From positions 186,001 through 250,000 of the forward strand of contig JABTUC010000005.1 in the NCBI GenBank assembly GCA_015075545.1: DNA of 64,000 bases. Reading direction: 5' to 3'. Below the pieces are notes generated by a model. That model saw only the letters and a program-made list of their open reading frames with translations. It had not been told where the DNA came from and made no database searches. The position numbers and the translations under genes were made by a program. This document shows positions 2,848 through 50,646 of this stretch, piece by piece. Source of the stretch: Ideonella sp. GTDB taxonomy: Bacteria; Pseudomonadota; Gammaproteobacteria; Burkholderiales; Burkholderiaceae_C. Numbering within the stretch: the first letter of the stretch is position 1; each line of letters opens with the position of its first letter.

Positions 2848-2853
2848 GATAAT
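2848..2853 (+). promoter_or_regulatory. -10-like element GATAAT six bases before the rlmD start
   Basis: GATAAT is separated from ATG 2860 by CGCCGC, and no Shine-Dalgarno is present. A transcript from this box would begin at or next to the start codon. I see no good -35 match, so the call rests on the -10 and on the same spacing recurring at other genes here. Confidence 0.45.
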
Positions 2854-2859
2854 CGCCGC

Positions 2860-4212
2860 ATGCACGATGACGAGGCGCCGTGGCTGCAGGTGGAGTCGCT
2901 CGACCTCGACGGGCAGGGCGTCGCGCACCGCAGCGACGGCAAGGTGGTGTTCGTCGAGGGCGCGCTGCCCGGTGAGCGCGTTCAAGTGTCGCTCGCGCGC
3001 CGCAAGGCGCAGTGGGAGCAGGGCACGCTGAGTGCGCTGCAGCGCGAGAGCTCGCAGCGGGTGGTGCCGCCGTGTCCGCATTTCGGCCTGCATGCGGGGG
3101 CGTGCGGCGGGTGCAAGCTGCAGCACCTGCATCCGTCTGCCCAGCTGGCGGCCAAACAGCGCGTGCTCGAAGACAGCCTGCAGCATCTGGCGCGCGTCAC
3201 CGCGCAGCGCGTGCTGCGGCCGCTGCAGGGCCCGGCCTGGGGCTACCGCCAGCGCGCGCGGCTGTCGGTGCGCTACGTGGCCAAGAAGAATGCCGTGCTG
3301 GTGGGTTTTCACGAGCGCAAGTCGCGCTACGTGGCCGACATGGCCGAGTGTCGCGTCCTGCCCCCCGCGGTCAGCGCGCTGTTGCCGGCGCTGCGCGAGT
3401 TGATCGGTGCGATGGCGGCGCGCGATCGCGTGCCGCAGATCGAGCTGGCGGCCGGCGACGACGTCTGCGCCCTTGTGCTGCGCCACCTCGATCCACTGTC
3501 CGGGCCTGACGTCGACCGCTTGCGCCGCTTCGCATCCAGCCACCGTGTGCAATGGTGGCTGCAACCAGGGGGCCCCGACACCGCGCGGCCGCTCGACGCC
3601 GGCGGCGGCGCGCTGAACTACGCCCTGCCGGATTTCGGGCTGAAGGTCGCTTTCCGCCCGACCGACTTCACGCAGGTGAACCTGGCGATCAACCGCGTGC
3701 TGGTGGCCCAGGCGGTACGCCACCTCGACCCTGCACCAGACGACCAGGTGATCGACTGGTTCTGCGGCCTGGGCAACTTCACGCTCGCGCTGGCGCGCCG
3801 CGCACGCACCGTGCTCGGCATCGAAGGCAGTCGCGGCCTGGTCGAGCGCGCGCGCGACAACGCGCGGGCCCATGCACTGGACGAGCGTGCCTCGTTCGAG
3901 GCGCGCAACCTGTTCGAGCTCTCGGCCGACGACCTGCTCGCGCTGCCGCGCGCGCAACGCTGGCTGATCGATCCGCCGCGCGAGGGCGCCTTCGCGCTGG
4001 CCAAGTCGGCGGCCGAACTGGCGCAGGCCGGCTGGCAGGCTCCGCAGCGCATCGTCTACGTGAGCTGCAACCCCGCGACGCTGGCGCGCGACGCCGGGCT
4101 GCTGGTTCATCGGGCCGGCTACGTGTGTGCGGCTGCAGGGGTGGTCGACATGTTCCCCCACACGGCGCACGTGGAAAGCCTTGCGGTCTTCGACCGCAAG
4201 GCTTCGGCGTAG
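2860..4212 (+). CDS. rlmD: 23S rRNA (uracil(1939)-C5)-methyltransferase RlmD (RumA)
   Basis: This 450-aa SAM-dependent methylase modifies U1939 of 23S rRNA. An N-terminal TRAM-like beta domain (residues 5-60) is followed by a cysteine cluster, with CPHFG...CGGC near residues 72-87, matching the [4Fe-4S] ligands of RumA. The SAM motif [15 protein letters not shown], the catalytic region IDPPREGAF and the nucleophile motif [11 protein letters not shown] are all present. ATG 2860 is chosen over upstream in-frame starts because homology begins there and a -10-like box lies just before it. The last codons and the stop run into the first copy of a 59-bp tandem repeat. Confidence 0.93.
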
Positions 4213-4344
4213 GGCCACATCGCGCAGCGATGTGCGCCGGAGCCAAAGCAGCATTCCGGGCTTCGGCGTAGGGCCACATCGCGCAGCGATGTGCGCCGGA
4301 GCCAAAGCAGCATTCCGGGCTTCGGCGCAGGGCCACATCGCGCG
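4202..4344. repeat. 59-bp tandem repeat, two full copies plus a partial third, each with a hairpin
   Basis: Copies at 4202-4260 and 4261-4319 are identical over 59 bp; a third begins at 4320 and diverges after about 25 bp. Each full unit carries the palindrome CACATCGC-GCA-GCGATGTG (8-bp stem, 3-nt loop). The first copy contains the last codons and stop of rlmD, so the repeat grew from the gene end into the intergenic space. REP-like function or RNA stability is possible but not shown. Confidence 0.85.
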
Positions 4345-4360
4345 AGCGCCTCACAACGAC

Positions 4361-4384
4361 GAAGGGCCCCTCCAGGGGCCCTTC
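4361..4384. terminator. Strong hairpin between convergent rlmD and the Bax-inhibitor gene
   Basis: A 10-bp perfect stem GAAGGGCCCC / GGGGCCCTTC with loop TCCA lies between the two convergent genes. There is no long T-run on either side, so it is a probable bidirectional terminator rather than a textbook one. Confidence 0.55.
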
Positions 4385-4405
4385 GCTCGGTTGCTCGGGG
4401 GCTCG

Positions 4406-5101
4406 TCAGTCCCGCTCGCCGCCGAAGATCCCGAGCAGCATCAGCAGGCTCTGGAACACGTTGTAGAGGTCCAGATAGATCGCCAGCGTTGCCGACACGT
4501 AGTTGGTCTCCCCGCCGTCGACCACCCGCTTGATGTCGTACAGCATGAACGCCGAGAAGACGCCCAGGCACAGCACCAGCATCGTCAGCATCAGCGCCGA
4601 CGACTGCAGGAAGAAGTTGACTACGAAGCCCACCAGCACGATCAGTGCGCCGACCATCAGGAACTTGCCCATGCTGGACAGGTCGCGCTTGATCACCGTC
4701 GACAGCGTCGCCATCGCGAAGAAGATCACTGCGGTGCCGCCGAACGCGGTCATGATCAGCGTGGCGCCGTTGGCCATGCCCAGCACGAAGGCCAGCAGGC
4801 GCGACAGCATCAGGCCCATGAAGAACGTGAAAGCCAGCAGCAGGTAGACGCCTGCCGGCGAGTTCTTGGTTCGCTCGATCGCGTAGATCAGCCCGAATGC
4901 GCCGGCGAAGAAGACGATCAGGCTGATGCCCGGTGTCATCGCGGTCGCGATGCCGGTGCTGATGCCGACCCACGCGCCGAGCACCGTGGGCAGCAGCGAA
5001 AGCGCCAGCAGCCAGTAGGTGTTGCGCAGGACGCGGTTGCGATCGGGGGCCAGCGCGCCGGAGCCGGCCAGGCCGGGCTGGGTTTGCAGCCGTTGTTCCA
5101 T
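4406..5101 (-). CDS. Bax inhibitor-1/YccA family inner-membrane protein
   Basis: This 231-aa protein has about seven hydrophobic segments (from LLALSLLPTVLGAWVGI through the C-terminal LAIYLDLYNVFQSLLMLLGIF) and the BI-1 family ending YLDLYNVF. YccA, the E. coli relative, is an FtsH substrate and modulator in the inner membrane; ftsH is also in this window but 7 kb away. The start at 5101 is chosen because GGAGGATTC lies directly upstream; a longer in-frame start at 5161 lacks a ribosome site. It is convergent with rlmD and divergent from carA. Confidence 0.9.
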   Translation of the reverse strand: MEQRLQTQPGLAGSGALAPDRNRVLRNTYWLLALSLLPTVLGAWVGISTGIATAMTPGISLIVFFAGAFGLIYAIERTKNSPAGVYLLLAFTFFMGLMLSRLLAFVLGMANGATLIMTAFGGTAVIFFAMATLSTVIKRDLSSMGKFLMVGALIVLVGFVVNFFLQSSALMLTMLVLCLGVFSAFMLYDIKRVVDGGETNYVSATLAIYLDLYNVFQSLLMLLGIFGGERD

Positions 5102-5245
5102 GAATCCTCCGAAGTTGGATGACGCGGGTTTCAGACCCACGCCCCTATTGTAAGTTCCCATTCAGGTGCCGGGGTGATTTGTGTTTCGCAATAGCGTCTG
5201 CTCATGGGGGTCGCGCCCCGCCGCGGTGCGGCAAACCCGCGCCGC

Positions 5246-5251
5246 TATAAT
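5246..5251 (+). promoter_or_regulatory. Probable carAB promoter -10 box
   Basis: A perfect TATAAT lies in the GC-rich divergent region upstream of carA; the -35 side is weak. It would give a leader of about 115 nt. That leader contains the palindrome CCGTCGACGG and an ACTCCG/CGGAGT hairpin shortly before the start, but nothing I can match to a known pyrimidine attenuator. Confidence 0.5.
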
Positions 5252-5371
5252 CTGCCCGCGTCCTACACCCCGCGCGCAGCCTAGCGAGACTCCGTCGACG
5301 GTTTCCCCTCGGACTCCGGCCTCCGAACAGCGGAGTGGAGCTGGGTGCGCATACCGACGGAGCCCCCTTTC

Positions 5372-6523
5372 TTGCCAGCCGCCTCGCCACCCGCCCTGCT
5401 CGCGCTCGCGGACGGCAGCGTCTTCATCGGCCATTCGATCGGCGCCGCGGGCGCCACGGTAGGCGAAGCGGTGTTCAACACCGCGCTCACCGGCTACCAG
5501 GAGATCCTGACCGATCCGAGCTACTGCCGGCAGATCGTCACGCTGACCTATCCGCACATCGGCAATACCGGCGTCAATGCCGAGGACGTCGAGGCCAGCC
5601 GGGTGCATGCCGCCGGCCTGGTGATCAAGGATCTGCCGGTGCGCTCGTCGAGCTTCCGCCAGACGATGACGCTGCAGCAGTACCTGCAGCGCGAGGCCGT
5701 GGTGGCGATCGCGGGCATCGATACGCGCCGGTTGACGCGTCACTTGCGCGCGCACGGCACGCAGAGCGGCTGTATCACCGCATTCGCACCCGCTGCGCGC
5801 ATCGAGCCGGCCGACATCGACGCCGCGGTGGCCCGGGCGCGCAATGCGCCCAGCATGCTGGGGCAGGATCTGGCGCGCGAGGTCTCGGTCAAGCAGCCTT
5901 ACGCGTGGCACGAGGGCGAATGGCGCCTGGGCGCTGGCCATGCCGCGCCGCCGCCCGCGCGCTGGCACGTCGTGGCCTACGACTACGGCATCAAGCGCAA
6001 CATCGCGCGCATGCTGGCCAGCCGCGGCTGCCGCGTCACCGTGGTGCCGGCACAGACCACGGCGGCCGAGGCGCTGGCGCTGTCGCCCGACGGCATCTTC
6101 CTGAGCAACGGGCCAGGCGACCCGCAGGCGTGCGACTACGCGATCCGCGCGACCCGAACGCTGGTGGACAGCGGCCTGCCGGTGTTCGGCATCTGCCTTG
6201 GCCACCAGATGCTCGCGCTGGCGTCGGGCGCCAAGACGTTCAAGATGAAGTTCGGCCACCACGGTGCCAACCACCCGGTGAAGGATCTCGACAGCGGCCG
6301 CGTCTCGATCACCAGCCAGAACCACGGTTTCGCGGTGGACGAGAAGACGCTGCCGCCCGCGCTGCGCGCCACCCATGTGTCGCTGTTCGACGGCACGCTG
6401 CAAGGGCTCGAGCGCACCGACCGGCCGGTGTTCAGCTTCCAGGGTCACCCCGAGGCGAGCCCGGGGCCGCACGACATCGGCTACCTGTTCGACCGTTTCG
6501 TGGCCCTGATGGAGAAGCGCTGA
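5372..6523 (+). CDS. carA: Carbamoyl-phosphate synthase small (glutaminase) subunit
   Basis: CarA releases ammonia from glutamine for CarB, feeding pyrimidine and arginine synthesis. The N-terminal CPSase domain starts [12 protein letters not shown]; the class I amidotransferase domain has the nucleophile motif FGICLGHQM (Cys about residue 275) and the histidine motif [13 protein letters not shown]. The TTG at 5372 is chosen: it has GGAG nine bases upstream and gives 383 aa, close to the E. coli length. GTG 5345 is in frame and would add nine residues. The stop is one base before carB, so the genes are coupled. Confidence 0.93.
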
Positions 6524-6524
6524 C

Positions 6525-9863
<3,339 letters not shown>

Positions 9864-9908
9864 ACTGCCATCATGGCGGCGCGTGGTGGCGCCGCCTGCT
9901 CGATGCGA

Positions 9909-9929: not shown

Positions 9930-9950
9930 CTCTTTGCGATGGAATCCGCG

Positions 9951-10427
9951 ATGGCCACCATTCCTCTGACACGCCGTGGCGCCGAACTGCTGAAGACCGA
10001 GTTGCAACGGCTCAAGTCGGTCGAACGCCATGCGGCCATCCAGGCGATCGCCGAGGCGCGAGGCCACGGCGACCTGTCGGAAAACGCCGAGTACGAGGCG
10101 GCCAAGGACAAGCAGGCCTTCGTCGAAGGGCGCATCGCCGAGATCGAGGGCAAGCTCGCCGCCGCGCAGGTGATCGACCCCGCCTCGCTCGATGCCGGCG
10201 GCCGCGTCGTGTTCGGCGCCACCGTCGAGCTCGAAGACGAAGCGGGCGGCCAGCGCGTCACCTACCAGATCGTCGGCGACGACGAGGCCGACCTGAAGCA
10301 GGGTCTGATCTCGATCAGCTCGCCGATCGCGCGCGCGCTGATCGGCAAGGAAAGCGGCGACGTGGCCGACGTGCAGGCGCCCGGTGGCGTCAAGAGCTAC
10401 GAGATCGTCGACGTGCGCTACCGGTGA
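9951..10427 (+). CDS. greA: Transcription elongation factor GreA
   Basis: This 158-aa protein rescues backtracked RNA polymerase by stimulating transcript cleavage in the secondary channel. The N-terminal coiled coil carries the tip [13 protein letters not shown], with the acidic residues D41 and E44 at the E. coli positions. The C-terminal FKBP-like domain ends SYEIVDVRY. The start at 9951 (MATIPLT) fits family length. The frame is open back to ATG 9873, which would add 26 basic or hydrophobic residues translated through a terminator hairpin, so I do not prefer it. Confidence 0.94.
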
Positions 10428-10499: not shown

Positions 10500-10970
10500 T
10501 CAGACCGCCTTCTTCTTGAGGCTGCTGGTGCGCCGCTTGGCGCGCTTGACCAACCCGCCTGCGGTGACGCGTTGATTGCCCAGCACCTGGACCTTCCTGA
10601 TCGTCGGCCGCTGCGCCGGATTGCGCGAGAACTTCACCAGCCGCACGGTGCGCGGGCCCGGCAATCGGCCGTCGCGCGAGGCCGTGGCTTTTGGCGGCAG
10701 GGGCCGCCACAGTACCAGCAGCTTGCCGATGTGCTGCACGGCCGCTGCGCCGAGGCGGTCGGCCGCGTCGATCAACAGCGCCTGTCGCTGCTCGCGGGAT
10801 TCGGAGAGCACGCGCACCTTGACCAATCCGTGCGCCCTCAGCGCCGAGTCGAGTTCGCGTTGCACCGAGGGGCTCAGGCCGTCGCTGCCGATCATCACCA
10901 CCGGGTCGAGGTGGTGCGCCGATGCGCGCAGCGCCTTGCGCTGCTCGGCAGACAGGATGATCGCGGCCAT
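10500..10970 (-). CDS. yhbY: YhbY/CRS1-YhbY (CRM) domain RNA-binding protein
   Basis: This 156-aa protein has the CRM fold at residues 5-95: [20 protein letters not shown], the GSDGLSPSV loop (GxxG-type) and [13 protein letters not shown]. YhbY associates with the pre-50S ribosome and group-II-intron-like RNA. A basic tail rich in Arg and Lys (residues 98-156) extends beyond the roughly 97-aa E. coli protein. It is divergent from rlmE, another 50S maturation gene, across a 23-bp gap. A GATAAT box lies six bases before its ATG. Confidence 0.9.
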
Positions 10971-30647: not shown

Positions 30648-31775
30648 TCAGCGCAACTGCAGATCGGCGGCGTCGAAGCGCAGCGACAGCGGTTCGATCG
30701 TCAACTGCTTGGGGCCTTCGTGCACGGCGCCCGCCAGCAGCGCGTCGACTCCGAGGCCCTGCGCGATCTGCACCGTGCGCGCTGCCTCGTCGGCGGCGAC
30801 GAAGAGGGCGAAGCCCGCTCCCATGTTGAACGTGCTGTAGGCCTGCCGGTCGTCGAGCCCCGCGTGCTGCTGGATGAAGCGCAGCACCGCCGGCACCTCA
30901 GGCAGCCGCGCGATGCGGTAGCTGAACGCGGCCGGATGGCGCAGCAGCTTGCGCCAGCCGTGGCCCGTGATGTTTGCGCAGTAGCGCGGCACGATGCCCT
31001 CGCGCCAGAGCGCCTCGGTGATCGGCGCGTACAGCACGGTCGGCGCCAGCAGCGCGTCGCCGTAGCCGAGCCCCGGCGCCACCGGCGTCGCATAGCCTTG
31101 TGGCAGCCGCTCGACCAGCTTGCGCGCCAGGCTGAGGCCGTTGGCATGGATGCCGCTGGAGTGCAGCAGCACGATGGCGTCGCCCGGCGCCAGCCGCTCG
31201 CCGAGCGACAGCCGCGGTTTCGGGTTGATCAGCCCCATGCACGAGGCCGCGAGGTCGATGCGCCCGTTCTCGACGATGCCAGCCAGCGCCGGCGTCTCGC
31301 CGCCGCCCCAGGCCACGCCACAGGCTTCGCATGCCTTGCGCCAGCCCTCGACGAGTCGGCCCGCGCGCGTCGCGTCGGCGAACCACTGCGAACCGCCGGC
31401 CGCCCAGTAGGCCTGCACGACCAGCGGGGTCGCGCCCACGGTGATGAGATCGTTGACGGCCATCGCGATGGTGTCCTGCGCGATGCCGTCGTAATAGCTG
31501 GCGCCGGTGAGCGCGGCCATCTCGTCGGCCACCAGCGCCTTGGAGCCCAGACACTCGACGATGGTGGCGATGTAGAACGGCCCGACGTCGACCACGTAGG
31601 CCGACTCGCCACGCGACGCCTGCACCTCGTGGAACCCGTGCGCGCCGAGTTGCGACGCAGTGGCCGCCGCCGCCCGTTGCGCCTGCACTTTCAGCGGATC
31701 GATCAGCTCGTAGTGAACGCCCGATTGCTCGTAGCTGATCGGGTTGCCGACAGCGGCTGGCGCAGCGCGACTCAT
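30648..31775 (-). CDS. AIR synthase (PurM) family protein
   Basis: At 375 aa it is recognisable as PurM-like from DTIAMAVNDLITVGATPLV, GGGETPALAGI and the late GHGWRKLLRH segment. PurM makes aminoimidazole ribotide from FGAM with ATP. This copy is divergent: the usual DGVGTK-type loop is replaced by VECLGSKALVA and the N-terminus is unlike E. coli PurM. It may be a lineage-specific PurM or an AIR-synthase-related enzyme with another substrate, so I leave out the gene symbol. The start has a GATAAT box six bases upstream and no Shine-Dalgarno. It is divergent from dnaX. Confidence 0.75.
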   Translation of the reverse strand: MSRAAPAAVGNPISYEQSGVHYELIDPLKVQAQRAAAATASQLGAHGFHEVQASRGESAYVVDVGPFYIATIVECLGSKALVADEMAALTGASYYDGIAQDTIAMAVNDLITVGATPLVVQAYWAAGGSQWFADATRAGRLVEGWRKACEACGVAWGGGETPALAGIVENGRIDLAASCMGLINPKPRLSLGERLAPGDAIVLLHSSGIHANGLSLARKLVERLPQGYATPVAPGLGYGDALLAPTVLYAPITEALWREGIVPRYCANITGHGWRKLLRHPAAFSYRIARLPEVPAVLRFIQQHAGLDDRQAYSTFNMGAGFALFVAADEAARTVQIAQGLGVDALLAGAVHEGPKQLTIEPLSLRFDAADLQLR

Positions 31776-31781: not shown

Positions 31782-31787
31782 ATTATC
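31782..31787 (-). promoter_or_regulatory. -10-like GATAAT six bases before the purM-like start
   Basis: On the minus strand GATAAT-CGAAGC-ATG, without a ribosome-binding site. It predicts a leaderless transcript. Confidence 0.45.
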
Positions 31788-31834: not shown

Positions 31835-31840
31835 TAGAAT
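31835..31840 (+). promoter_or_regulatory. -10-like TAGAAT seven bases before the dnaX start
   Basis: TAGAAT-TAGCTGC-ATG. Transcription would begin at about 31847, next to ATG 31848, so the mRNA would be leaderless, or translation would start at the second ATG (31857). Confidence 0.45.
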
Positions 31841-31847: not shown

Positions 31848-33575
31848 ATGGGGTCGATGGTCCTGGCGCGCAAGTACCGGCCGCGCCGCTTCAGCGAGTT
31901 GGTCGGGCAGGAGCACGTCGTGCGCGCGCTGGGCAACGCGCTGGCCAGCGGCCGCCTGCATCACGCCTATCTGTTCACCGGCACGCGCGGCATCGGCAAG
32001 ACCACCGTCTCGCGCATTCTCGCCAAGTGCCTGAACTGCACCGGCGCCGACGGCAGCGGCGGCGTCACCGCCGAGCCCTGCGGCTGCTGCCAGGCCTGCA
32101 TCGAGATCGACGCCGATCGCTACATCGACTACATCGAGCTCGATGCGGCATCCAATCGCGGTATCGAAGAGGCGCGCGAACTGATCGAACGCGCCGCGTA
32201 CAAACCGAGCGTCGGCCGCTACAAGGTGTTCATGATCGACGAGGCGCACCAGCTCACGAGGGACGCCTTCAGCGCGCTGCTGAAGACGCTGGAGGAGCCG
32301 CCGGAGTACCTGAAGTTCGTGTTGGCCACCACCGACCCCGAACGGATGCTGCCCACCGTGCTGAGCCGCTGCCTGCAGTTCAACCTGCGGCCGATGACGC
32401 CGCAGGCGGTGCAGGAGCACCTCGAGCGCGTGCTCGCCGACGAGAAGATCGTGCACGATACGGGTTCGTTGCGGCTGCTGGCGCGAGCCGCGCGCGGCTC
32501 GATGCGCGATGCGCTGTCGCTTGCCGATCAGGCCATCGCCTACGGAGGTGGGCGGCTCGACGAGGCTGCGGTGCGCGCGATGCTCGGCAGTGTCGAGCGC
32601 TCGGTGGCTTCGGCTTTCGTGCGAGCGCTGGGCGCGCGCGATGGCGCCGCCCTGCTGGCGGCGGTCGACGACATTCGCCAGCGCGGCCAGTCGGCCGCTG
32701 GGGCGCTCGAGGAGCTGGCGATGCTGCTGCAGCAGATGGCGATCGTCCAGGCGGTGCCCGGCGCCCTCGACAGCGCCGATCCCGACACCGCCGAAGCCAC
32801 GCAGCTGGCCGGCGCCTGGCCGGCCGACGAGGTGCAGCTCTTGTACAGCCTGGCCATCCACGGCCGCGAGGAGCTTTCGCTGCTCGGCGATGAATACGCC
32901 GCTCTGGCGATGGTGCTGCTGCGCTTTCTGGCGTTCCCGGCGGCGCCGTCCGGAGCGCTGAGTACCGGGCCGATGGCATCGGCAAGCACCGCAACCGCTG
33001 CGCCCGAGCCGAGCGTGACGAAGGCCGTCGATGCCAGCCATGACGAACCGCCGCCATGGCTCGACGCCCCCGAAAGCGAAGAACTCCGCCCGCGGGCAGC
33101 CGCTGGCCAGACGCAGGTCGCCGGCGTGGCCGACGGCGTGCCGGCGCTGCACCCCACCGCGCTCGGTGAACGCTGGGCGGCGCTGGTCGCCAACTTGTCG
33201 CAACGCGGCCTGATCGCCGCGCTGGTGCGCGAGCTGGCAATGCAGAGCGAGTGGCTTGCCGCCTCGGCCGGGCCCCAGGGAGCGCGCTGGCGTCTGCGCA
33301 CCGAGCGCGAATCGCTGCGCACCGCGGCGCTGCGCGACAAGCTGCAGGCGGCCATCGTGGCGGCGCAGGGCGAGCCGGTCGAACTCGAGCTGGTCGAAGG
33401 CGCGCCGCTCGACACCCCGGCGCTGCGCGAGGCGGCCGCGCGCGCACGTGCACAGCAGCAGGCCGAGCAGACGATGACCAACGACCCGGTGGTGCGCGAG
33501 CTGATGTCGCAATTCAAGACGGCACGCATCGTCCCCGGCTCGATCAAGCCCGTTCAAAGGAACCCCTCAGCATGA
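31848..33575 (+). CDS. dnaX: DNA polymerase III subunits tau/gamma
   Basis: This 575-aa clamp-loader ATPase has Walker A GTRGIGKT (45-52), zinc-module cysteines in CLNCTG...CGCCQAC, Walker [11 protein letters not shown] and sensor 1 LATTDPE. The C-terminal part beyond about residue 380 is the tau extension, ending in DNA-polymerase-binding sequence. I see no A-AAA-AAG slippery site, so a separate gamma by frameshift is not supported. The stop overlaps the ybaB start (ATGATGA). ATG 31848 is used, and ATG 31857 is possible. Confidence 0.94.
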
Positions 33576-37771: not shown

Positions 37772-38887
37772 TCACCCACCGATGTAGTGCATCTCGATGC
37801 GGCGTTCGCCGGTCCCGACCGCGGTGCCTTCTGCACCGCGCAGCTCCGAATAGCGATCGCTGCGGCGACCCCACAGCTCACCGAGCACGGTGGCGATCTC
37901 GAGGTCGCTGCGGCCGCCGCGCAGCAGCGCGCGCAGGTCGTGGCCGCGGGTGGCGAACAGACAGGTGAAGAGCTTGCCCTCGGTGGACAGGCGCGCGCGG
38001 TTGCAGTCGCGGCAGAACGCCTTGGTGACGCTGGAGATGAGCCCGATCTCGCCGGCGCCGTCGCGATAGCGCCAGCGCTCGGCGGTCTCGCCGCGGGCGG
38101 TGGGTGCCACGGGCTCGAGCGGCCATTGGGCCTGAAGGCGGTCGAGCACCTGGGCCGACGGCACCACCTGGTCCATCCGCCAGCCGTTGCTGGCGCCGAC
38201 ATCCATGTACTCGATGAAGCGCAGCACGATGCCGCTGCCGCGGAAGTGGCGCGCCATCGACACGATCTCGTGATCGTTGATGCCGCGCTGCACGACCATG
38301 TTGACCTTGATCTTCCCGAGGCCCGCCTGCACCGCGGCGTCGATGCCGGCCAGCACGTCGGCGACCGGAAAGTCCATGTCGTTCATGCGGCGGAACACGG
38401 CATCGTCCAGGGCATCGAGGCTGACCGTCACGCGCGACAGACCGGCCGCTTTCAACGCGTGCGCCTTGCGCGCCAGCAGCGAGCCGTTGGTGGTGAGGGT
38501 CAGTTCGAGCGGCTCGCCGTCGGCACCGCGCACTTCGGTGAGCATCGCCACCAGATCCTCGACATTGCGGCGCAGCAGCGGCTCGCCACCGGTGAGCCGT
38601 ACCTTGCTCACGCCGTGCGCGGCGAATACCCGTGCCAGGCGGGTGATCTCCTCGAAGCTGAGCAGCGAGCGGTGCGGCAGGAACTGGTACTCGCGGTCGA
38701 ACACCGACTTGGGCATGCAGTAGCCGCAACGAAAATTGCAGCGGTCGGTGAGCGAGATGCGCAGATCGTGCAGGGGCCGCCCGAGCTGGTCGCTGACCAG
38801 GCCAGTGGGCTCGCGCAGGCGCTGCGGAACGACCGGCACCTCGGCGGCGTAGCGCAGATCGGCCAGCGGTATCACGGATTCGCCCAT
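37772..38887 (-). CDS. moaA: GTP 3',8-cyclase MoaA
   Basis: This 371-aa radical-SAM enzyme starts molybdopterin synthesis from GTP. The N-terminal cluster is CNFRCGYC, the SAM-binding segment is [11 protein letters not shown], the second cluster is in [19 protein letters not shown], and the protein ends in the required GG (HYIGG). moeA, moaD and moaE lie about 10 kb away; moaC and the rest are not in the window. A CACAAT box lies six bases before the ATG, with no Shine-Dalgarno. Confidence 0.95.
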
Positions 38888-38893: not shown

Positions 38894-38899
38894 ATTGTG
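38894..38899 (-). promoter_or_regulatory. -10-like CACAAT six bases before the moaA start
   Basis: On the minus strand CACAAT-CGCCCG-ATG. It predicts a leaderless or near-leaderless transcript. No molybdenum-cofactor riboswitch fits in the short upstream region. Confidence 0.45.
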
Positions 38900-43835: not shown

Positions 43836-43874
43836 GAGGTGCGTTATGGGCTACCCAAGGGGGCACAACCTGCG

Positions 43875-43880
43875 ATTATA
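43875..43880 (-). promoter_or_regulatory. Probable bcp promoter -10 box
   Basis: A perfect TATAAT on the minus strand, 40 bp before the bcp ATG; the -35 is weak. Confidence 0.5.
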
Positions 43881-43951
43881 AAGTTCCATTGCCGGAGCCC
43901 TTGGCACGGGGCCTTCGGCTGCCGGGCGGCGCCGACGCCGATGCGTGGCAC

Positions 43952-44329: not shown

Positions 44330-44461
44330 GTGGGGCGCGGGCCTGCCGAGCGGGCGTGGGATGCTGCCGACGAAAGAGCCGGATCGCCGAAGTTGCTATG
44401 GTTAAATTCTAAGTGGCGCAGTGCAGCATCTCGACGCCTGCCGCATAACCCAGGAGTCGCA

Positions 44462-45691
44462 TTGGGCAAACCGATCGCCAAGTCCAGCAAGCTCGCCGAC
44501 GTGGGCTACGACATCCGCGGCCCGGTGCTCGAGAAGGCCCGCCAGATGCAGGAAGAGGGCCACAAGATCATCCAGTTGAACATCGGCAACCTGGCGGTGT
44601 TCGGTTTCGAGCCGCCCGACGAGATCGTGCAGGACATGATCCGCAACCTGCCGGCCAGCGCGGGCTACACCGACAGCAAGGGGCTGTTCGCGCCGCGCAA
44701 GGCGGTGATGCACTACACGCAAGAGAAACACATCGCCGGCGTCACGGTCGACGACGTCTATCTGGGCAACGGCGCCTCCGAGCTGATCGCCTTCAGCTTG
44801 AACGCGCTGCTCGACGCCGGCGACGAGATCCTGGTACCGGCGCCCGACTACCCGCTGTGGACGGCCGCGGTGTCGCTGTCGGGCGGCACGCCGGTGCACT
44901 ACCTGTGCGACGAGCAGTCCGACTGGCTGCCTGACCTGGCCGATCTGCGCCGCAAGATCACGCCGGCCACCCGCGGCATCGTGGTGATCAACCCCAACAA
45001 CCCGACCGGGGCGCTGTATCCGCCGGATCTGTTGAAGGAGATCGTCGACATCGCGCGGCGGCACCACCTGATCGTGTTCGCCGACGAGATCTACGACAAG
45101 ACGCTGTACGACGGCCAGTCGCACACCAGCATCGCGTCGCTCGCCGACGACGTGCTGTTCGTCACCTTCAACGGCCTGTCGAAAAACTACCGCGCCTGCG
45201 GCTACCGCGCCGGCTGGATGGTGGTGTCGGGCGACAAGCGCAACGCCAGCGACTACATCGAAGGCCTGAACATGCTGTCGTCGATGCGGCTGTGCGCCAA
45301 CACGCCCGGGCAGCTCGCGATCCAGACCGCGCTGGGCGGCTACCAGAGCATCAAGGACCTGGTCGCGCCCGGCGGTCGCCTGACGAAGCAGCGCGACTTG
45401 GCTCATCAATTGCTGACCTCGATCCCCGGTGTCAGCGTCGTCAAGCCGAAGGCCGCGCTGTACATGTTTCCGCGGCTCGACCCGAAGATCTACCCGATCG
45501 CAGACGACCAGCAGTTCGCCTACGAACTGCTGGCCGAGGAGAAAGTATTGATCGTGCAAGGCACGGGCTTCAACTGGCCCCGGCCCGATCATTTTCGCCT
45601 TGTGTTCCTGCCGAATGCCGACGACCTCACCGACGCCATCGGCCGCATCGAGCGCTTCCTGCATCACTACCGAAAACGACACAGCACATGA
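44462..45691 (+). CDS. AlaA-like PLP-dependent aminotransferase
   Basis: This 409-aa fold-type I aminotransferase has the PLP lysine in FNGLSKNYRACGYRAGW, the cofactor-contacting NPNNPTGALY and the C-terminal carboxylate-binding Arg in DHFRLVFLP. The N-terminus KPIAKSSKLADVGYDIRGP fits the alanine aminotransferase family seen upstream of hom in betaproteobacteria. The TTG at 44462 is chosen, with CAGGAG seven bases upstream. Its stop overlaps the hom start (ATGA), so it belongs to the hom-thrC operon. Confidence 0.9.
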   Translation: MGKPIAKSSKLADVGYDIRGPVLEKARQMQEEGHKIIQLNIGNLAVFGFEPPDEIVQDMIRNLPASAGYTDSKGLFAPRKAVMHYTQEKHIAGVTVDDVYLGNGASELIAFSLNALLDAGDEILVPAPDYPLWTAAVSLSGGTPVHYLCDEQSDWLPDLADLRRKITPATRGIVVINPNNPTGALYPPDLLKEIVDIARRHHLIVFADEIYDKTLYDGQSHTSIASLADDVLFVTFNGLSKNYRACGYRAGWMVVSGDKRNASDYIEGLNMLSSMRLCANTPGQLAIQTALGGYQSIKDLVAPGGRLTKQRDLAHQLLTSIPGVSVVKPKAALYMFPRLDPKIYPIADDQQFAYELLAEEKVLIVQGTGFNWPRPDHFRLVFLPNADDLTDAIGRIERFLHHYRKRHST

Positions 45692-47049
45692 CCACACGCA
45701 GTGTTGCCGCGAAGGCCGCGCCGCGGCGCGATGCCGAAGCCAAGCCGATCCTCGTCGGGTTGCTCGGCATCGGCACCGTCGGCAGCGGCACTTTCAAGGT
45801 GCTGCAACGCAACCTGGAGGAGATCCGGCGCCGCGCGGGTCGCGCGATCCGCATCGCCACGGTCGCCGATCTCGACCAGGCGCGGGCGCGCAGCGTCGTC
45901 GGCGACGCGGCCCAGGTGGTCAGCGACGCACGGCAGGTGCTCGCCGATCCGGCGATCGACATCGTGGTCGAGCTGATCGGCGGCACCACCACCGCCAAGG
46001 CGCTGGTGCTCGAAGCGATCGCCAGCGGCAAGCACGTGGTCACCGCCAACAAGGCGCTGCTGGCGGTGCACGGCAACGAGATCTTCGCCGCCGCGCACGC
46101 CGGGGGCGTGATGGTCGGCTTCGAGGCGGCGGTGGCCGGCGGCATTCCGATCATCAAGGCGCTGCGCGAAGGGCTCACCGCCAACCACATCGAATGGGTG
46201 GCCGGCATCGTCAACGGCACCACCAATTTCATCCTCAGCGAGATGCGCGACAAGGGCCTCGACTTCGGCAGCGTGCTCAAGGAGGCGCAGCGCCTGGGCT
46301 ACGCCGAGGCCGACCCGACGTTCGACATCGAGGGCATCGACGCCGCGCACAAGGCGACCATCATGTGCGCGATTGCCTTCGGCGTGCCGATGCAGTTCGA
46401 CAAGGCGTACGTCGAGGGCATCACCAAGCTTTCGGCCACCGACATCCGCTACGCCGAGCAGCTCGGCTACCGCATCAAGCTGATCGCGATGGCCAGGCGC
46501 AGCGAGCCGGGCATCGAGCTGCGCGTGCACCCGACGCTGATTCCGGCGCGGCGGCTGATCGCCAACGTGGAGGGCGCGATGAACGCGGTGGTGGTGCAGG
46601 GCGACGCGGTCGGCACCACGCTGTACTACGGCAAGGGCGCCGGCGCCGAGCCCACCGCGTCGGCGGTGGTGGCCGACCTGGTGGACATCACGCGGCTGCA
46701 CACGGCCGACCCGGATCACCGCGTGCCGCACCTGGCGTTTCAGCCCGACGCGCTGGCGGCGACGCCGATCCTGCCGATGGACGAGGTGGTCACCGCGTAC
46801 TACCTGCGACTGCGGGTGGCCGACCAGACGGGAGTACTGAGCCGCATCACGACCATCCTGGCCGAGCACGACATTTCGATCGACGCGGTGCTGCAGCGCG
46901 AGTCGGCGCACGGCGAAGGGCAGACCGACCTCATCATCCTGACGCACGACACCCGCGAAGGCCGCATGAACCAGGCGATCGCCACGATGCAGGCGCTGCC
47001 CACCGTGCTGGCGCCGATCGTGCGCATCCGCAAGGAAGAGTTGAATTGA
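45688..47049 (+). CDS. hom: Homoserine dehydrogenase
   Basis: This 453-aa enzyme reduces aspartate semialdehyde to homoserine for threonine and methionine. It has the Rossmann motif GLLGIGTVGSG near residue 28, the catalytic-domain signature AAVAGGIPIIKAL, and NGTTNFILSEM. A C-terminal ACT domain (YYLRLRVADQTGVLSRIT) suggests feedback control by threonine. ATG 45688 overlaps the upstream stop, and the thrC start overlaps its own stop. Confidence 0.96.
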   Translation: MTTRSVAAKAAPRRDAEAKPILVGLLGIGTVGSGTFKVLQRNLEEIRRRAGRAIRIATVADLDQARARSVVGDAAQVVSDARQVLADPAIDIVVELIGGTTTAKALVLEAIASGKHVVTANKALLAVHGNEIFAAAHAGGVMVGFEAAVAGGIPIIKALREGLTANHIEWVAGIVNGTTNFILSEMRDKGLDFGSVLKEAQRLGYAEADPTFDIEGIDAAHKATIMCAIAFGVPMQFDKAYVEGITKLSATDIRYAEQLGYRIKLIAMARRSEPGIELRVHPTLIPARRLIANVEGAMNAVVVQGDAVGTTLYYGKGAGAEPTASAVVADLVDITRLHTADPDHRVPHLAFQPDALAATPILPMDEVVTAYYLRLRVADQTGVLSRITTILAEHDISIDAVLQRESAHGEGQTDLIILTHDTREGRMNQAIATMQALPTVLAPIVRIRKEELN

Positions 47050-48458
47050 GGTACGTGAGCACGCGGGGCGACGCGACCCCGCGCGCGTTCTGCGAGATTC
47101 TGCTCGAGGGCCTGGCGCCCGACGGCGGCCTGTACCTCCCACAGCGCTATCCGCAGGTCGATCAGGCGACGCTGAGCCGATGGCGGGCCCTGTCGTATGC
47201 CGACCTCGCGTTCGAGATCCTGTCGCTGTACATCGACGACATTCCCGCGGCCGATCTGCGTGCACTGTGCCGCAAGGTGTACTCGAGCGAAGTGTTCGGC
47301 AGCGAGGTGATCGTGCCGTTGCGCCCGCTCGAGGCGGGGCTGTGGATCGAAGGCCTGTCCAACGGGCCGACGCTGGCCTTCAAGGACATGGCGATGCAGT
47401 TGCTCGGCGCGCTGTTCGAGTACGAGCTGGCGCGCCGCGGCGAACGCCTCAACATCCTCGGGGCGACCTCGGGCGATACCGGCAGCGCGGCGGAGTACGC
47501 GATGCGAGGCAAACGCGGCGTGCAGGTGTTCATGCTGTCGCCGCAGGGGCGCATGAGCCCGTTCCAGCAGGCGCAGATGTACAGCCTCGTCGACGCCAAC
47601 ATCCACAACCTCGCGATCGAGGGCGTGTTCGACGACTGCCAGGACATCGTCAAGGCGGTGGCCGGCGACCTGGCCTTCAAGCGCGCTCACCGCATCGGCA
47701 GCGTCAACTCGATCAACTGGGCGCGGCTGGTGGCGCAGGTGGTGTACTACTTCGCGGGCTGGTTCCAGGCCACGCGCGGTGGCGATGCGCCGGTCAGCTT
47801 CGCGGTGCCGTCGGGCAACTTCGGCAACGTCTGTGCCGGCCACGTCGCGCGCATGATGGGGCTGCCGATCGATCGCCTGATCGTCGCCACCAACGAGAAC
47901 GACGTGCTCGACGAGTTCTTCAAGAGCGGCCGCTACCGCGTGCGCGGCGCCGCCGAGACCCACGAGACCTCGAGCCCGTCGATGGACATCAGCAAGGCGT
48001 CGAACTTCGAGCGCTTCGTGTGCGACCTGCTGCAGCGCGACACCGCGCGCACGCGCGCGCTGTTCGGGCCGTTGCTGGCCCACGAGGGCGGTTTCACGCT
48101 CGACGCCACCGTGATGGCGCGCTGCGCGCAGTTCGGCTTCGTCTCGGGGCGCAGCACCCACGCCGACCGGCTGGCGACGATCCGCGAAGTCTGGCAGCGC
48201 CACGGCGACCTGATCGATCCGCACACCGCCGACGGCGTGAAGGTGGCGCGCGATCTGCGGCGGCCCGACGAGACAGTGATCGCGCTGGAAACCGCGCTGC
48301 CGGCGAAGTTCGCCGAAACGATCGTCGAAGCCATCGGCACCGCGCCGGCGCGCCCGGCGGCGCTGCAGGGGTTGGAGGAGCGGCCGCGTCGCGTCACCGT
48401 GCTGCCGGCGAGCGTCGAGCGTGTCAAGGCGCTGATCGCCGCGCACGACCCTGCCTGA
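47046..48458 (+). CDS. thrC: Threonine synthase
   Basis: This 470-aa PLP enzyme converts O-phosphohomoserine to threonine. It has the N-terminal RYVSTRGD, the PLP lysine in GPTLAFKDMAMQ and the phosphate-binding GATSGDTGSAA. The TTG at 47046 overlaps the hom stop (TTGA), and homology starts exactly there. thrB is not adjacent. Confidence 0.95.
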   Translation: MRYVSTRGDATPRAFCEILLEGLAPDGGLYLPQRYPQVDQATLSRWRALSYADLAFEILSLYIDDIPAADLRALCRKVYSSEVFGSEVIVPLRPLEAGLWIEGLSNGPTLAFKDMAMQLLGALFEYELARRGERLNILGATSGDTGSAAEYAMRGKRGVQVFMLSPQGRMSPFQQAQMYSLVDANIHNLAIEGVFDDCQDIVKAVAGDLAFKRAHRIGSVNSINWARLVAQVVYYFAGWFQATRGGDAPVSFAVPSGNFGNVCAGHVARMMGLPIDRLIVATNENDVLDEFFKSGRYRVRGAAETHETSSPSMDISKASNFERFVCDLLQRDTARTRALFGPLLAHEGGFTLDATVMARCAQFGFVSGRSTHADRLATIREVWQRHGDLIDPHTADGVKVARDLRRPDETVIALETALPAKFAETIVEAIGTAPARPAALQGLEERPRRVTVLPASVERVKALIAAHDPA

Positions 48459-48482
48459 GGCAGGCGCTTCGCGCCGCCTGCC
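48459..48482 (+). terminator. Hairpin after thrC
   Basis: An 8-bp stem GGCAGGCG / CGCCTGCC with an inner GCGC-rich loop starts immediately after the thrC stop. There is no T-run; it may end the aminotransferase-hom-thrC operon. Confidence 0.5.
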
Positions 48483-48509
48483 CGACGACGGCCGCGCCGG
48501 CTTGGCACA

Positions 48510-49802
48510 ATGCAGCGGGTGATCGACACCCACACGACACTACAGGCGCAGGCTTCCCGCGCGGCCCCGCTGATGAGCCTGGACGAGGCGATCGAGGGGC
48601 TGCTCGAAGGCACCCGCGGGCACGTCATCACCGAGCGCGAAACGGTGTCGACCTTCGACGCCTTGCATCGGGTGCTGGCGCAGGATGTCCACTCGGCCCT
48701 GGCCGTGCCGCCGTCCGACAACAGCGAGATGGATGGCTACGCGATGCACGCGGTCGACGTGGCTGTAGCGGACACCGTGCTGCCGGTCTCGCAGCGCATC
48801 GCCGCCGGGCAGGTCGGCCAGCCGTTGCAGCCGGGCACCGCGGCGCGCATCTTCACCGGGGCGCCGATTCCGCCAGGAGCCGACGCCGTGGTGATGCAGG
48901 AGCTGTGCGAGGCGATCGCGCCGGCGCGCGAGGGCGAGTTCGGCAGCGTGCGCGTGCGCACGGTGCCGACGCCGGGCCTGTCGATCCGCCGTCGCGGCGA
49001 GGACGTGCCGTTCGATGCCGTGGTGCTGCGCCGTGGCAGCCGCATCACGCCGCAGGCGATGGGCCTGGCCGCCGCGGTGGGGGCGGCCACGCTGCAGGTG
49101 TGCCGGCGGCCGCGGGTGGCGCTGTTCTCCACCGGCGACGAACTGGCGATGCCCGGCGAGCCACTAAGGCCCGGGGCGATCTACAACTCGAACCGCTTCA
49201 CGCTGCGCGGCCTGCTGCAGGCCGCCGGCTGCACGGTGGTCGACCTCGGCATCGTGCCCGACAAACTCGACGCCACGCGCGACGCCCTGCGCCGCGCGGC
49301 CGCTGGGGCTGACTTGGTGCTCACCTGCGGCGGCGTCTCGGTCGGCGAGGAAGACCACTTGAAACCGGCATTGCGCGCCGAGGGGCGGCTCGACCTGTGG
49401 TCGATCGCGGTCAAGCCCGGCAAGCCGCTGGCCTTCGGTGCGGTACGCCGCAGCGGCGGCGAAACCCTGTACGTCGGGCTGCCCGGCAACCCGGTGTCAA
49501 GCACGGTGACCTTCCTGGTGGCGGTGATGCCGGTGCTGCGCGCGCTGTGCGGCGCACCGCCGCAAGGGCCCCGGCCCATCGCGATGACCGCCGGCTTCGA
49601 CTGGCCGGCGCCGGTGTCGCGCCGCGAGTTCCTGCGTGCGCGGATCGCCGCCGATGGCCGACTGGAGATCTACACCAACCAGGGCTCGGGCGTGCTGACC
49701 TCGCTGGTGTGGGCCGACGGCCTGATCGACAACCCGCCCGGGCAGAAGATCGCCCGCGGCGATCGCGTGCAGTTCCTGCCGTTGCCGATGCTGTTGTCAT
49801 GA
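48510..49802 (+). CDS. moeA: Molybdopterin molybdenumtransferase MoeA
   Basis: This protein of up to 430 aa inserts molybdate into adenylylated molybdopterin. Signatures: DNSEMDGYAMH, ARIFTGAPIPPGADAVVMQE, STGDELA, SNRFTLRGLL, TCGGVSVGEEDHLK and GLPGNPVSS. The start is uncertain: ATG 48510 overlaps a CACAAT box, so ATG 48573 (MSLDEAIEGL, aligned to E. coli MSLDTAL) is a good alternative. The stop overlaps a possible moaD start. Confidence 0.94.
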   Translation: MQRVIDTHTTLQAQASRAAPLMSLDEAIEGLLEGTRGHVITERETVSTFDALHRVLAQDVHSALAVPPSDNSEMDGYAMHAVDVAVADTVLPVSQRIAAGQVGQPLQPGTAARIFTGAPIPPGADAVVMQELCEAIAPAREGEFGSVRVRTVPTPGLSIRRRGEDVPFDAVVLRRGSRITPQAMGLAAAVGAATLQVCRRPRVALFSTGDELAMPGEPLRPGAIYNSNRFTLRGLLQAAGCTVVDLGIVPDKLDATRDALRRAAAGADLVLTCGGVSVGEEDHLKPALRAEGRLDLWSIAVKPGKPLAFGAVRRSGGETLYVGLPGNPVSSTVTFLVAVMPVLRALCGAPPQGPRPIAMTAGFDWPAPVSRREFLRARIAADGRLEIYTNQGSGVLTSLVWADGLIDNPPGQKIARGDRVQFLPLPMLLS

Positions 49803-49855
49803 GCCGTTCTGGGACGTCCGACGCGAAGACTTCAACGCCCGGCGGGGACGCGCCG

Positions 49856-50119
49856 ATGAGCGGGCGCCTGCGCGTGCAAGTGCGCTATTTCGCCTCGCTG
49901 CGCGAAGCGCTGGGTGCCGGCGAATCGGTGGAGATCGCCTCCGGCGCGACGGTGGGTTCGCTGCGCGACACTCTGGTCGCGCGCGGCGGCGAGCACGGCC
50001 GTCTGCTGGCGCGCGGCCGGGCGGTGCGCTGCGCGCTGCAGCAGGCGATGGCCGACGAAGGCGCCGTGCTGCACGACGGCGCCGAGGTGGCGTTCTTTCC
50101 GCCCGTCACCGGGGGGTGA
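49856..50119 (+). CDS. moaD: Molybdopterin synthase small subunit MoaD
   Basis: This 87-aa ubiquitin-like sulfur carrier ends in the required double glycine (PPVTGG) that is thiocarboxylated. The domain begins RVQVRYFASLREALG. ATG 49856 gives family length with GGGGA upstream. ATG 49799, which overlaps the moeA stop, would add 19 residues and couple translation. It is followed by moaE, its partner. Confidence 0.92.
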   Translation: MSGRLRVQVRYFASLREALGAGESVEIASGATVGSLRDTLVARGGEHGRLLARGRAVRCALQQAMADEGAVLHDGAEVAFFPPVTGG

Positions 50120-50156
50120 ACGTCGCTCGCGCCGGCAGACGACGCCGGTCGCATGA

Positions 50157-50162
50157 CAGAAT
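50157..50162 (+). promoter_or_regulatory. -10-like CAGAAT seven bases before the moaE start
   Basis: CAGAAT-CGCGCGC-ATG with no Shine-Dalgarno. It could give moaE its own leaderless transcript inside the moe/moa group. Confidence 0.35.
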
Positions 50163-50169
50163 CGCGCGC

Positions 50170-50646
50170 ATGTCGCGCGAGGTCAGCATCCAGCCAACCG
50201 ACTTCGACCTGAGTGCCGAGGTGGCCGCACTGCGCGAGGCCGACGGCCAGGTCGGCGCGGTGGCGACGTTCGTCGGCACGATGCGCGACCGCAACGACGG
50301 CACGCGGGCAAGTGCGATGGAACTCGAGCACTACCCAGGCATGACCGAGCGTGCCATCGAGACGATGGTGGCCGAGGCGCGTGGCCGCTTCGAGATCCGC
50401 GGCGTGCGCGTGATCCACCGGGTCGGCGCGTTGCGGCCGGGCGACCAGATCGTACTGGTGGCGGTCACGGCGACGCACCGCCAGGCGGCCTTCGAGGCCT
50501 GCGAGTTCCTGATGGACTACCTGAAGACACAGGCGCCGTTCTGGAAGAAGGAGACCACGCCCGCGGGCACCCGCTGGGTCGATGCCCGGGCGAGCGACGA
50601 CGATGCGCTCGCGCGTTGGGGCCTGCCAGTGAGCAACGCCGGGTGA
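50170..50646 (+). CDS. moaE: Molybdopterin synthase catalytic subunit MoaE
   Basis: This 158-aa protein transfers sulfur from MoaD thiocarboxylate to precursor Z. Conserved segments: GAVATFVGTMRD, MELEHYPGMTE, HRVGALRPGDQIV and the C-terminal KTQAPFWKKE with the catalytic lysines. ATG 50170 starts family homology. The stop overlaps a GTG that could start crcB. Confidence 0.94.
   Translation: MSREVSIQPTDFDLSAEVAALREADGQVGAVATFVGTMRDRNDGTRASAMELEHYPGMTERAIETMVAEARGRFEIRGVRVIHRVGALRPGDQIVLVAVTATHRQAAFEACEFLMDYLKTQAPFWKKETTPAGTRWVDARASDDDALARWGLPVSNAG

What the first reader, a model, noticed from the sequence alone, without database searches (positions are those of the whole stretch)
2848..50172. 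Recurrent -10 box 6-7 nt before start codons: a class of leaderless genes
Seen directly: rlmD (GATAAT, 6 nt, ATG 2860), yhbY (GATAAT, 6 nt), the purM-like gene (GATAAT, 6 nt), moaA (CACAAT, 6 nt), dnaX (TAGAAT, 7 nt), moaE (CAGAAT, 7 nt) and possibly ATG 9873 before greA (TAAACT, 6 nt). None of these has a Shine-Dalgarno, while carA, trxA, clpB, glmM, prpE, nadB and the Bax-inhibitor gene do. The -10 to start-site distance is usually 6-7 nt, so the mRNA should begin at the ATG. Two translation-initiation modes would then coexist in this genome.
Basis: partly seen in the sequence, partly recalled or inferred. Interest (0 to 1): 0.7.

Follow-up and report, generated by a model that had tools for sequence, protein, structure and literature searches.

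The report
Family-wide leaderless genes in Burkholderiales
A small class of mostly housekeeping genes in this bacterium seems to start its messenger RNA at the start codon itself, with no leader; this is a known way of starting translation, but here some genes keep it, with the same promoter box, across much of a bacterial family.

Summary
Six of the seven listed genes (rlmD, yhbY, a purM-like gene, moaA, dnaX, moaE) have a -10-like hexamer 6-7 nt before ATG and no clear Shine-Dalgarno (SD). The seventh, ATG 9873, is rejected: greA starts at 9951. In a 1.23 Mb sample of the 3.69 Mb genome the peak is sharp: 25 of 700 ATG genes have a strict box at gap 6-7 (shuffles: mean 0.83, maximum 4), against 0 of 287 GTG/TTG genes. 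A looser motif gives an excess of about 48 genes, roughly 5%. The 48 rule-based candidates are poor in SD and show no -35 box. In the family genomes examined (this one included) the box is kept before dnaX in 23 of 23, yhbY 21 of 23, rlmD 19 of 22, moaA 17 of 21, but moaE and ruvB in under half. Leaderless mRNAs are already measured in other Burkholderiales, so the class is a known kind. Less expected: one near-symmetric -10 may serve two divergent, nearly leaderless genes (comF/partner in 9 of 23 genomes, yhbY/rlmE in 10 of 23). No transcript 5' end was measured.

The parts
2848..2853 (+). -10-like box GATAAT of rlmD, 6 nt before ATG 2860; predicted start of transcription at A of the ATG
   Evidence: box (GATAAT or GACAAT) in 6 of 6 genus genomes (this one included) and 13 of 16 other family genomes
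2860..4212 (+). rlmD, 23S rRNA (uracil1939-C5)-methyltransferase
   Evidence: NF009639, 593.2 bits
10977..10982 (-). -10-like box GATAAT of yhbY, 6 nt before ATG 10970
   Evidence: 5 of 6 genus genomes (the sixth has GTG after the same box) and 16 of 17 other family genomes
10500..10970 (-). yhbY, ribosome assembly RNA-binding protein
   Evidence: TIGR00253, 74.6 bits, cut-off 78.5; PF01985
10976..10981 (+). CATTAT on the other strand of the same box, possible -10 for divergent rlmE (predicted leader about 6 nt in this genome)
   Evidence: sequence of the 23-bp gap; GATAAT core in 22 of 23 family genomes, both starts close to it in 10 of 23, not including this genome
10994..11662 (+). rlmE, divergent partner of yhbY
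   Evidence: NF008390, 210.4 bits (below its cut-off of 269)
31782..31787 (-). -10-like box GATAAT of the purM-like gene, 6 nt before ATG 31775
   Evidence: 6 of 6 genus genomes, 4 of 6 other family genomes with an orthologue of 60% identity or more
30648..31775 (-). purM-like gene (PurM paralogue, below the purM cut-off), divergent from dnaX
   Evidence: AIRS/AIRS_C; TIGR00878 164.9 bits, cut-off 236.35
31835..31840 (+). -10-like box TAGAAT of dnaX, 7 nt before ATG 31848
   Evidence: 6 of 6 genus, 17 of 17 other family genomes; TAGAAT in 17 of 18 genus representatives, TACAAT in one
31848..33575 (+). dnaX, DNA polymerase III tau/gamma; the motif VLARKYRP begins at residue 5, which nearly fixes the start (Met4 of this protein is a formal alternative)
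38894..38899 (-). -10-like box CACAAT of moaA, 6 nt before ATG 38887
   Evidence: 6 of 6 genus, 11 of 15 other family, 0 of 9 genomes of other families of the order
37772..38887 (-). moaA, GTP 3',8-cyclase, with about 30 residues before the family model
   Evidence: TIGR02666, 384.9 bits, from residue 32
50157..50162 (+). -10-like box CAGAAT of moaE, 7 nt before ATG 50170
   Evidence: 3 of 5 genus, 7 of 17 other family genomes; the weakest of the six
50170..50646 (+). moaE, molybdopterin synthase catalytic subunit
   Evidence: NF007959, 182.8 bits
48506..48511 (+). CACAAT before moeA, 7 nt before GTG 48519: possible leaderless GTG start, uncertain
   Evidence: box kept in 4 of 5 genus relatives, a start codon at that distance in one of them
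5147..5152 (-). contrast case: TACAAT whose predicted transcript start (5140) lies 39 nt before the SD-led ATG 5101 of the Bax-inhibitor family gene
9861..9866 (+). TAAACT before ATG 9873: rejected, overlaps the carB stop codon; greA starts at 9951

Best explanation
About 5% of this genome's genes, with ATG starts, carry a sigma-70-type -10 element whose last base lies 6-7 nt (5-8 in relatives) before the ATG. RNA polymerase bound there would start the RNA at, or within about 2 nt of, the A of the ATG. The mRNA would have no leader and no SD and would be translated by the leaderless route, in which ribosomes take the 5'-terminal AUG directly. SD-led genes coexist with them. Shown here: the peak, its ATG specificity, SD depletion, absence of a -35 consensus, and conservation of box and spacing for several genes across a family. 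Inferred: where transcripts start, and how ribosomes load.
For: Peak at gaps 6 and 7 without gene calls and with composition-only gene calls: 25 against 0.83 in shuffles, 0 of 287 for GTG/TTG. 48 of 700 ATG genes at gap 6-7 by a fixed rule; the other 29 gap pairs hold 1-16. SD of 4 nt or more in 3 of 48 candidates against 46.9% of 652 other ATG genes. Nearest upstream gene divergent in 24 of 48 candidates against 146 of 652, and on the same strand within 60 nt in 6 of 48 against 271 of 652. In genus plus family, this genome included, the box is kept for dnaX 23 of 23, yhbY 21 of 23, rlmD 19 of 22, moaA 17 of 21, purM-like 10 of 12; the same rule at gaps 14-17 finds 3, 1, 2, 0 and 0. dnaX's start is nearly fixed by its N-terminal motif. 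Of 16 named loci near the family, 11 have such a box at rlmD and together they show the same peak. Measured 5' ends in two Burkholderiales show leaderless mRNAs with this box.
Against: No transcript 5' end or N-terminus was measured. moaE (10 of 22) and ruvB (10 of 23) keep the box in under half of the family genomes examined; 5 of 16 named loci lack it at rlmD, among them Sphaerotilus and one Rubrivivax. A weak -35 is also the rule for leadered boxes here (at least 4 of 6 in 13% of 46, random 7%), so its absence is not specific. 6 of 48 candidates have a same-strand gene within 60 nt upstream and could be read through. moaA's model begins only at residue 32. Gene starts come from my own caller. 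A hexamer at this place could in principle bind a regulator.
Confidence: 0.9

Rival explanations
1. The hexamers are operators or other conserved protein-binding sites next to start codons, not -10 elements, and the mRNAs start further upstream.
For: Hexamer choice is gene-specific and conserved (dnaX TAGAAT, yhbY GATAAT, moaA CACAAT in 9 of 12 genus representatives), and a base or two just before the box is also partly conserved, which a generic -10 would not require.
Against: Different genes have different hexamers that share the -10 pattern (partly imposed by the selection rule). The spacing to ATG is 5-8 nt, where sigma-70 would start. SD is depleted, and little is conserved in the 38 nt upstream of the box, apart from yhbY, where that stretch runs into rlmE. 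Functions are mostly unrelated.
Confidence: 0.05
2. Chance: in a 70% GC genome a few AT-rich hexamers near ATGs look like promoters to a selective reader.
For: Six cases picked by eye; one further case (ATG 9873) was indeed spurious.
Against: 25 observed against 0.83 expected in shuffles; conserved in most family genomes for five of the six genes.
Confidence: 0.01
3. The box is a real -10, but the true start codon lies further downstream, so the mRNA has a short leader and the listed ATGs are mis-annotated.
For: Start choice is uncertain in GC-rich genomes; moeA shows a kept box with a shifting start codon; in five family genomes the partner of comF starts 21-45 nt from the shared box; moaA's model begins at residue 32 and rlmD's match begins at model position 15.
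Against: dnaX's motif begins at residue 5; yhbY and moaE match their models from residues 6 and 4; the peak is ATG-specific and sharp; the spacing to these ATGs is kept in relatives.
Confidence: 0.05

Closest known systems
Leaderless mRNAs of Cupriavidus metallidurans CH34 (dRNA-seq, PMC7563307; passages seen)
   Same: A Burkholderiales genus (placement recalled); TAnAAT motif at -10; 4.67% of primary start sites have a leader under 5 nt; coexist with leadered genes
   Different: There 5' ends are measured; here they are inferred. No comparison across a family is given in the passages seen.
Leaderless transcripts of Burkholderia cenocepacia J2315 (PMC4603805; passages seen)
   Same: 72 genes with the start site exactly at the start codon and 42 within 10 nt, of 2089 genes with a primary start; TA-rich motif directly upstream in place of SD
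   Different: 24 of those are tRNAs; the rest are enriched in regulators, whereas here many are replication, repair, rRNA-modification and cofactor genes (no enrichment test done)
TA-led genes in 953 bacterial genomes (Zheng et al. 2011, PMC3160421; passages seen)
   Same: TANNNT about 12 bp upstream of the start; beta-Proteobacteria 9 of 71 genomes, mean 6.8% of genes
   Different: Genome counts; the passages seen show no gene-by-gene conservation or shared divergent boxes
Bidirectional promoters from near-symmetric -10 elements (PMC10268837; passages seen)
   Same: Two starts on opposite strands, usually 18 bp apart, from one near-symmetric -10
   Different: Not tied to leaderless genes in the passages seen; here the gap between two ATGs is about the length of one such promoter

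Membership tests
Leaderless (TA-led) genes of bacteria | -10-like box with its 3' end 6-8 nt before the start codon, above chance | tested here: met
Leaderless (TA-led) genes of bacteria | No Shine-Dalgarno sequence | tested here: met
   3 of 48 with 4 nt or more of SD against 46.9% of 652 other ATG genes
Leaderless (TA-led) genes of bacteria | ATG start preferred | tested here: met
   no peak for GTG/TTG; strict count 0 of 287 (start codons as chosen by my caller)
Leaderless (TA-led) genes of bacteria | First gene of its transcription unit | tested here: inconclusive
   0 of 48 with under 10 nt upstream non-coding DNA (17.9% of all other genes); 24 of 48 divergent from the upstream neighbour (146 of 652 others), but 6 of 48 have a same-strand gene within 60 nt
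Leaderless (TA-led) genes of bacteria | Mapped transcript 5' end within a few nt of the start codon | not testable with these tools
   no RNA data available
Sigma-70 promoter with both -35 and -10 | TTGACA-like -35 at a 16-18 bp spacer | tested here: not met
   1 of 48 candidates and 0 of 25 boxes of the commonest hexamers reach 4 of 6 matches; random upstream positions 7%
Bidirectional promoter with near-symmetric -10 | Overlapping -10 boxes on both strands and starts 7-25 bp apart | tested here: inconclusive
   geometry met by sequence for comF/partner (9 of 23) and yhbY/rlmE (10 of 23); start sites not mapped

The most novel reading that the evidence does not exclude
In this bacterial family single near-symmetric -10 elements, without -35 boxes, drive pairs of divergent genes whose mRNAs both begin at or within about 2-3 nt of their start codons. 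The whole control region between two genes then shrinks to about 20-25 bp (comF and its partner: AGTATATT with both ATGs 6 nt away in three genomes; yhbY and rlmE: GATAAT plus its complement, in ten). Together with gene-specific, conserved hexamers this would be selection for leaderless expression of particular housekeeping genes over a family's history.
Probability: 0.5. Interest if true: 0.6.

Novelty: new member of a known kind. Interest (0 to 1): 0.45.

Why it matters
The surveys whose passages I saw count leaderless genes per genome. Here they can be followed gene by gene: dnaX, yhbY, rlmD and moaA keep the box and the spacing in most genomes of a family whose proteins have diverged to about 50-75% identity, while ruvB and moaE change state. 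That makes it testable whether leaderless initiation is selected for particular genes or merely tolerated. It would also improve start annotation in GC-rich Burkholderiales and gives very small divergent promoters to test in a cultivated relative.

Tried and rejected
ATG 9873 as a greA start: rejected. rlmE as strictly leaderless in this genome: rejected, its possible box predicts a leader of about 6 nt (coordinates). moeA as a conserved leaderless gene: not supported; the box is kept in 4 of 5 genus relatives but the start codon is not (of the five other family stretches fetched, two gave no moeA match and the rest no usable start). A sigma-54 reading of TTGGCACAAT before moeA: dropped, no -12 element seen (consensus recalled, checked by eye). 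Extended -10 (TGn, recalled): not seen in the candidate profile. ruvB as a further family-wide case: only 10 of 23. Enrichment of functional classes: not tested; 40 of the 42 candidates outside the window were scanned, 35 of 40 had a Pfam hit at 1e-9, and no control set was scanned. The plasmid search listed carB and unannotated matches of 75-78% identity in its first five rows and was not informative. Six papers were seen as passages only. The search for leaderless with bidirectional promoter and divergently transcribed gave 0 papers; the listings for leaderless work in this family (15 of 483 shown, 12 of 72 shown) showed none, but they were capped and the library holds open-licence papers only.

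Limits of the counts: the rule accepts any in-frame ATG from the upstream stop to 45 nt inside the match, so it is lenient; control gaps 14-17 under the same rule gave 0-3 of 12-23. The genus counts include this genome, which was chosen for having the boxes. Rows dropped there: loci beyond the 30 returned per search (G013 among them), matches beginning after residue 60, a second moaE copy of G005 whose other copy was not returned as a locus, and purM-like matches under 60% identity. Searches compare gaps in different reading phases, and their background depends on GC. In the gammaproteobacterial set gap 7 is the highest of 31 gaps (57), though gaps 22 (55) and 13 (52) are close and gap 6 is low (28). 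One search did not check for stops between start and match; one search did, and its numbers (comF start close in 16, not 17; yhbY/rlmE both close in 10, not 11) are the ones used.
Full report
The window lies in a 3.69 Mb, 13-contig genome (85% complete); the sampled third is 70% GC. Its rlmD protein is closest (64-70% identity) to loci titled Rubrivivax, Ideonella, Roseateles, Inhella, Sphaerotilus and Burkholderiaceae, so it belongs near those genera; the order Burkholderiales is recalled from their names. The species is not known to me.

Observation. Gene identities were confirmed: rlmD, moaA and moaE above their cut-offs, yhbY just below one NCBIfam cut-off but above Pfam's, dnaX by Pfam. 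The purM-like gene is a PurM paralogue that scores below the purM cut-off. The hedged ATG 9873 is wrong: the GreA models begin 26 or more residues further on, the caller chooses 9951, and the hexamer contains the carB stop codon.

Chance. I took 60 stretches of the same genome, which with the window make 1.228 Mb. Without any gene calling, [TGC]A[TGC]AAT stands before ATG 27 times at gap 6 and 13 times at gap 7; the other gaps from 0 to 30 hold 0-10. GTG, TTG, CTG and ATC show no peak there; AGT has 10 at gap 7, and CTG has 17 at gap 3 and 15 at gap 12. I then called 987 genes by composition alone, blind to upstream signals. Of 700 ATG genes 25 have the strict box at gap 6-7; dinucleotide shuffles give a mean of 0.83 and a maximum of 4 in 100. 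The loose NANNNT gives 83 against 35.4, an excess of about 48 genes (6.8% of ATG genes, 4.8% of all). Among 287 GTG/TTG genes the strict count is 0. Genome-wide the strict pattern occurs 114 times at gap 6-7 and 19 times at gap 14-15, the highest ratio of 60 genomes of the order searched (one other is of the same family); the ratio exceeds 1 in 60 of 60 and z exceeds 3 in 44. GC content and reading phase affect these ratios.

Anatomy. A fixed rule (A at 2, T at 6, at least 4 of 6 matches to TATAAT, gap 6-7) finds 48 candidates of 700; the 29 other gap pairs hold 1-16. The informative positions are the hexamer, a mostly C or G base close before the ATG, and the ATG itself. There is no -35: 1 of 48 candidates and 0 of 25 boxes of the commonest hexamers reach 4 of 6 to TTGACA, against 7% of random positions; leadered boxes in the same genome show little more (13% of 46). 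SD of at least 4 nt occurs in 3 of 48, against 46.9% of 652 other ATG genes and 21.6% of 5000 random internal positions. None of the 48 has under 10 nt of upstream non-coding DNA, against 17.9% of all other genes. Half (24 of 48) are divergent from their upstream neighbour, against 146 of 652; 6 of 48 have a same-strand neighbour within 60 nt, against 271 of 652. With the box's last T at -7, transcription should start on the A of the ATG. A contrast inside the window is the Bax-inhibitor gene: TACAAT predicts a start at 5140, 39 nt before an ATG with GGAGG.

Conservation. I searched 40 relatives per gene and read up to 30 loci each. Under one rule (gaps 5-8), same genus with this genome / other genera of the family / other families of the order: dnaX 6 of 6, 17 of 17, 2 of 7; yhbY 5 of 6, 16 of 17, 2 of 7; rlmD 6 of 6, 13 of 16, 0 of 8; moaA 6 of 6, 11 of 15, 0 of 9; purM-like 6 of 6, 4 of 6, none to test; moaE 3 of 5, 7 of 17, 0 of 7; ruvB, from outside the window, 5 of 6, 5 of 17, 2 of 7. 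Control gaps 14-17 in genus plus family gave 3 of 23, 1 of 23, 2 of 22, 0 of 21, 0 of 12, 0 of 22 and 0 of 23 in that order. Among genus representatives that keep a box the hexamer is gene-specific: TAGAAT for dnaX in 17 of 18, GATAAT for yhbY in 17 of 17, CACAAT for moaA in 9 of 12, GATAAT in 5 and GACAAT in 9 of 14 for rlmD. Upstream positions carry little information, with exceptions: one or two bases just before the box (moaA, dnaX, rlmD), and for yhbY a stretch about 25 nt upstream that lies in or near rlmE. dnaX's start is nearly certain because VLARKYRP begins at residue 5 here and in the six relatives printed; this protein also has Met4.

Named loci. Sixteen loci near the family show the same peak (17 and 12 at gaps 6 and 7; 0-6 elsewhere); at rlmD 6 of 16 have GATAAT, 4 GACAAT, 1 GAAAAT, and 5 none, among them Sphaerotilus, Methylibium and one Rubrivivax. 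Nine Methylophilales-type loci (44% GC) show no peak, though 5 of 9 have TAAAAT at this place before rlmD; 55 mostly gammaproteobacterial loci show no gap-6 peak (28) but their highest value is at gap 7 (57; 55 and 52 at gaps 22 and 13). So the gene set looks like a trait of this family, with turnover for some genes, inside an order where the class itself is general.

Divergent pairs. Between a ComF-like gene (below its family cut-offs) and its partner (no Pfam hit at 1e-9, no NCBIfam hit at 1e-30) the two ATGs are 20 bp apart, with TATATT on one strand and TATACT on the other. The core AGTATATT is present in 20 of 23 family genomes; comF's ATG lies 5-8 nt from it in 16 of 23, the partner's within 9 nt in 11, and both in 9. 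Between yhbY and rlmE, GATAAT is present in 22 of 23, and both starts are close in 10 of 23; in the window itself rlmE would have a leader of about 6 nt. Near-symmetric -10 elements that fire both ways, usually with starts 18 bp apart, are known. dnaX and the purM-like gene are divergent too, but with separate boxes. Whether one box really serves both genes is inference.

Known or new. Measured leaderless mRNAs exist in two relatives: 4.67% of primary starts in C. metallidurans, and 72 genes exactly at the start codon plus 42 within 10 nt in B. cenocepacia, 24 of them tRNAs. A survey lists 9 of 71 beta-proteobacterial genomes with a mean of 6.8%. My 5% fits. The class is therefore a known kind; gene-by-gene conservation across a family and the shared divergent boxes are what I did not find in the passages and listings seen (searches, all on an open-licence library).

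Functions among the candidates include parE-like, mutM, ruvB, recG, argS, hemE, hemC, rlmB, an rlmI-like gene, relA/spoT, thiL and several regulators. No enrichment is claimed.

Verdict: real, conserved for several genes, and of a known kind.

Noticed in passing
L127:9069-9090: Two divergent genes (ComF-like and an unassigned partner) with ATGs only 20 bp apart share a near-symmetric TATATT/TATACT box; the 8-mer AGTATATT is kept in 20 of 23 family genomes.
   Followed up: partly
30648-31775 and 31848-33575: A PurM paralogue sits divergently beside dnaX; orthologues of 69% identity or more occur in the genus and six other genera of the family, the other relatives giving matches of 30-37% identity.
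   Followed up: partly
48506-48519: GGCACAAT before moeA is kept in 4 of 5 genus relatives while the start codon behind it changes.
   Followed up: partly
L263 (G005:C13:2139-2612): One genome of the genus carries a second moaE 99% identical to the window's, although its other genes compared here are about 69-93% identical; contamination of a bin or recent transfer.
   Followed up: no
G008:C1:276441-277588: moaA matches in two overlapping pieces, one with an internal TGA, in one family genome.
   Followed up: no
L018, L020, L022, L023, L025 (upstream of rlmD): Five of nine Methylophilales-type loci have TAAAAT 6-7 nt before an ATG in the rlmD frame, a possible independent leaderless rlmD in AT-richer relatives.
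   Followed up: no
L108:17463-17501: A further divergent pair with a 37-bp gap holds GATAAT for hemE and a second AT-rich stretch on the other strand.
   Followed up: no
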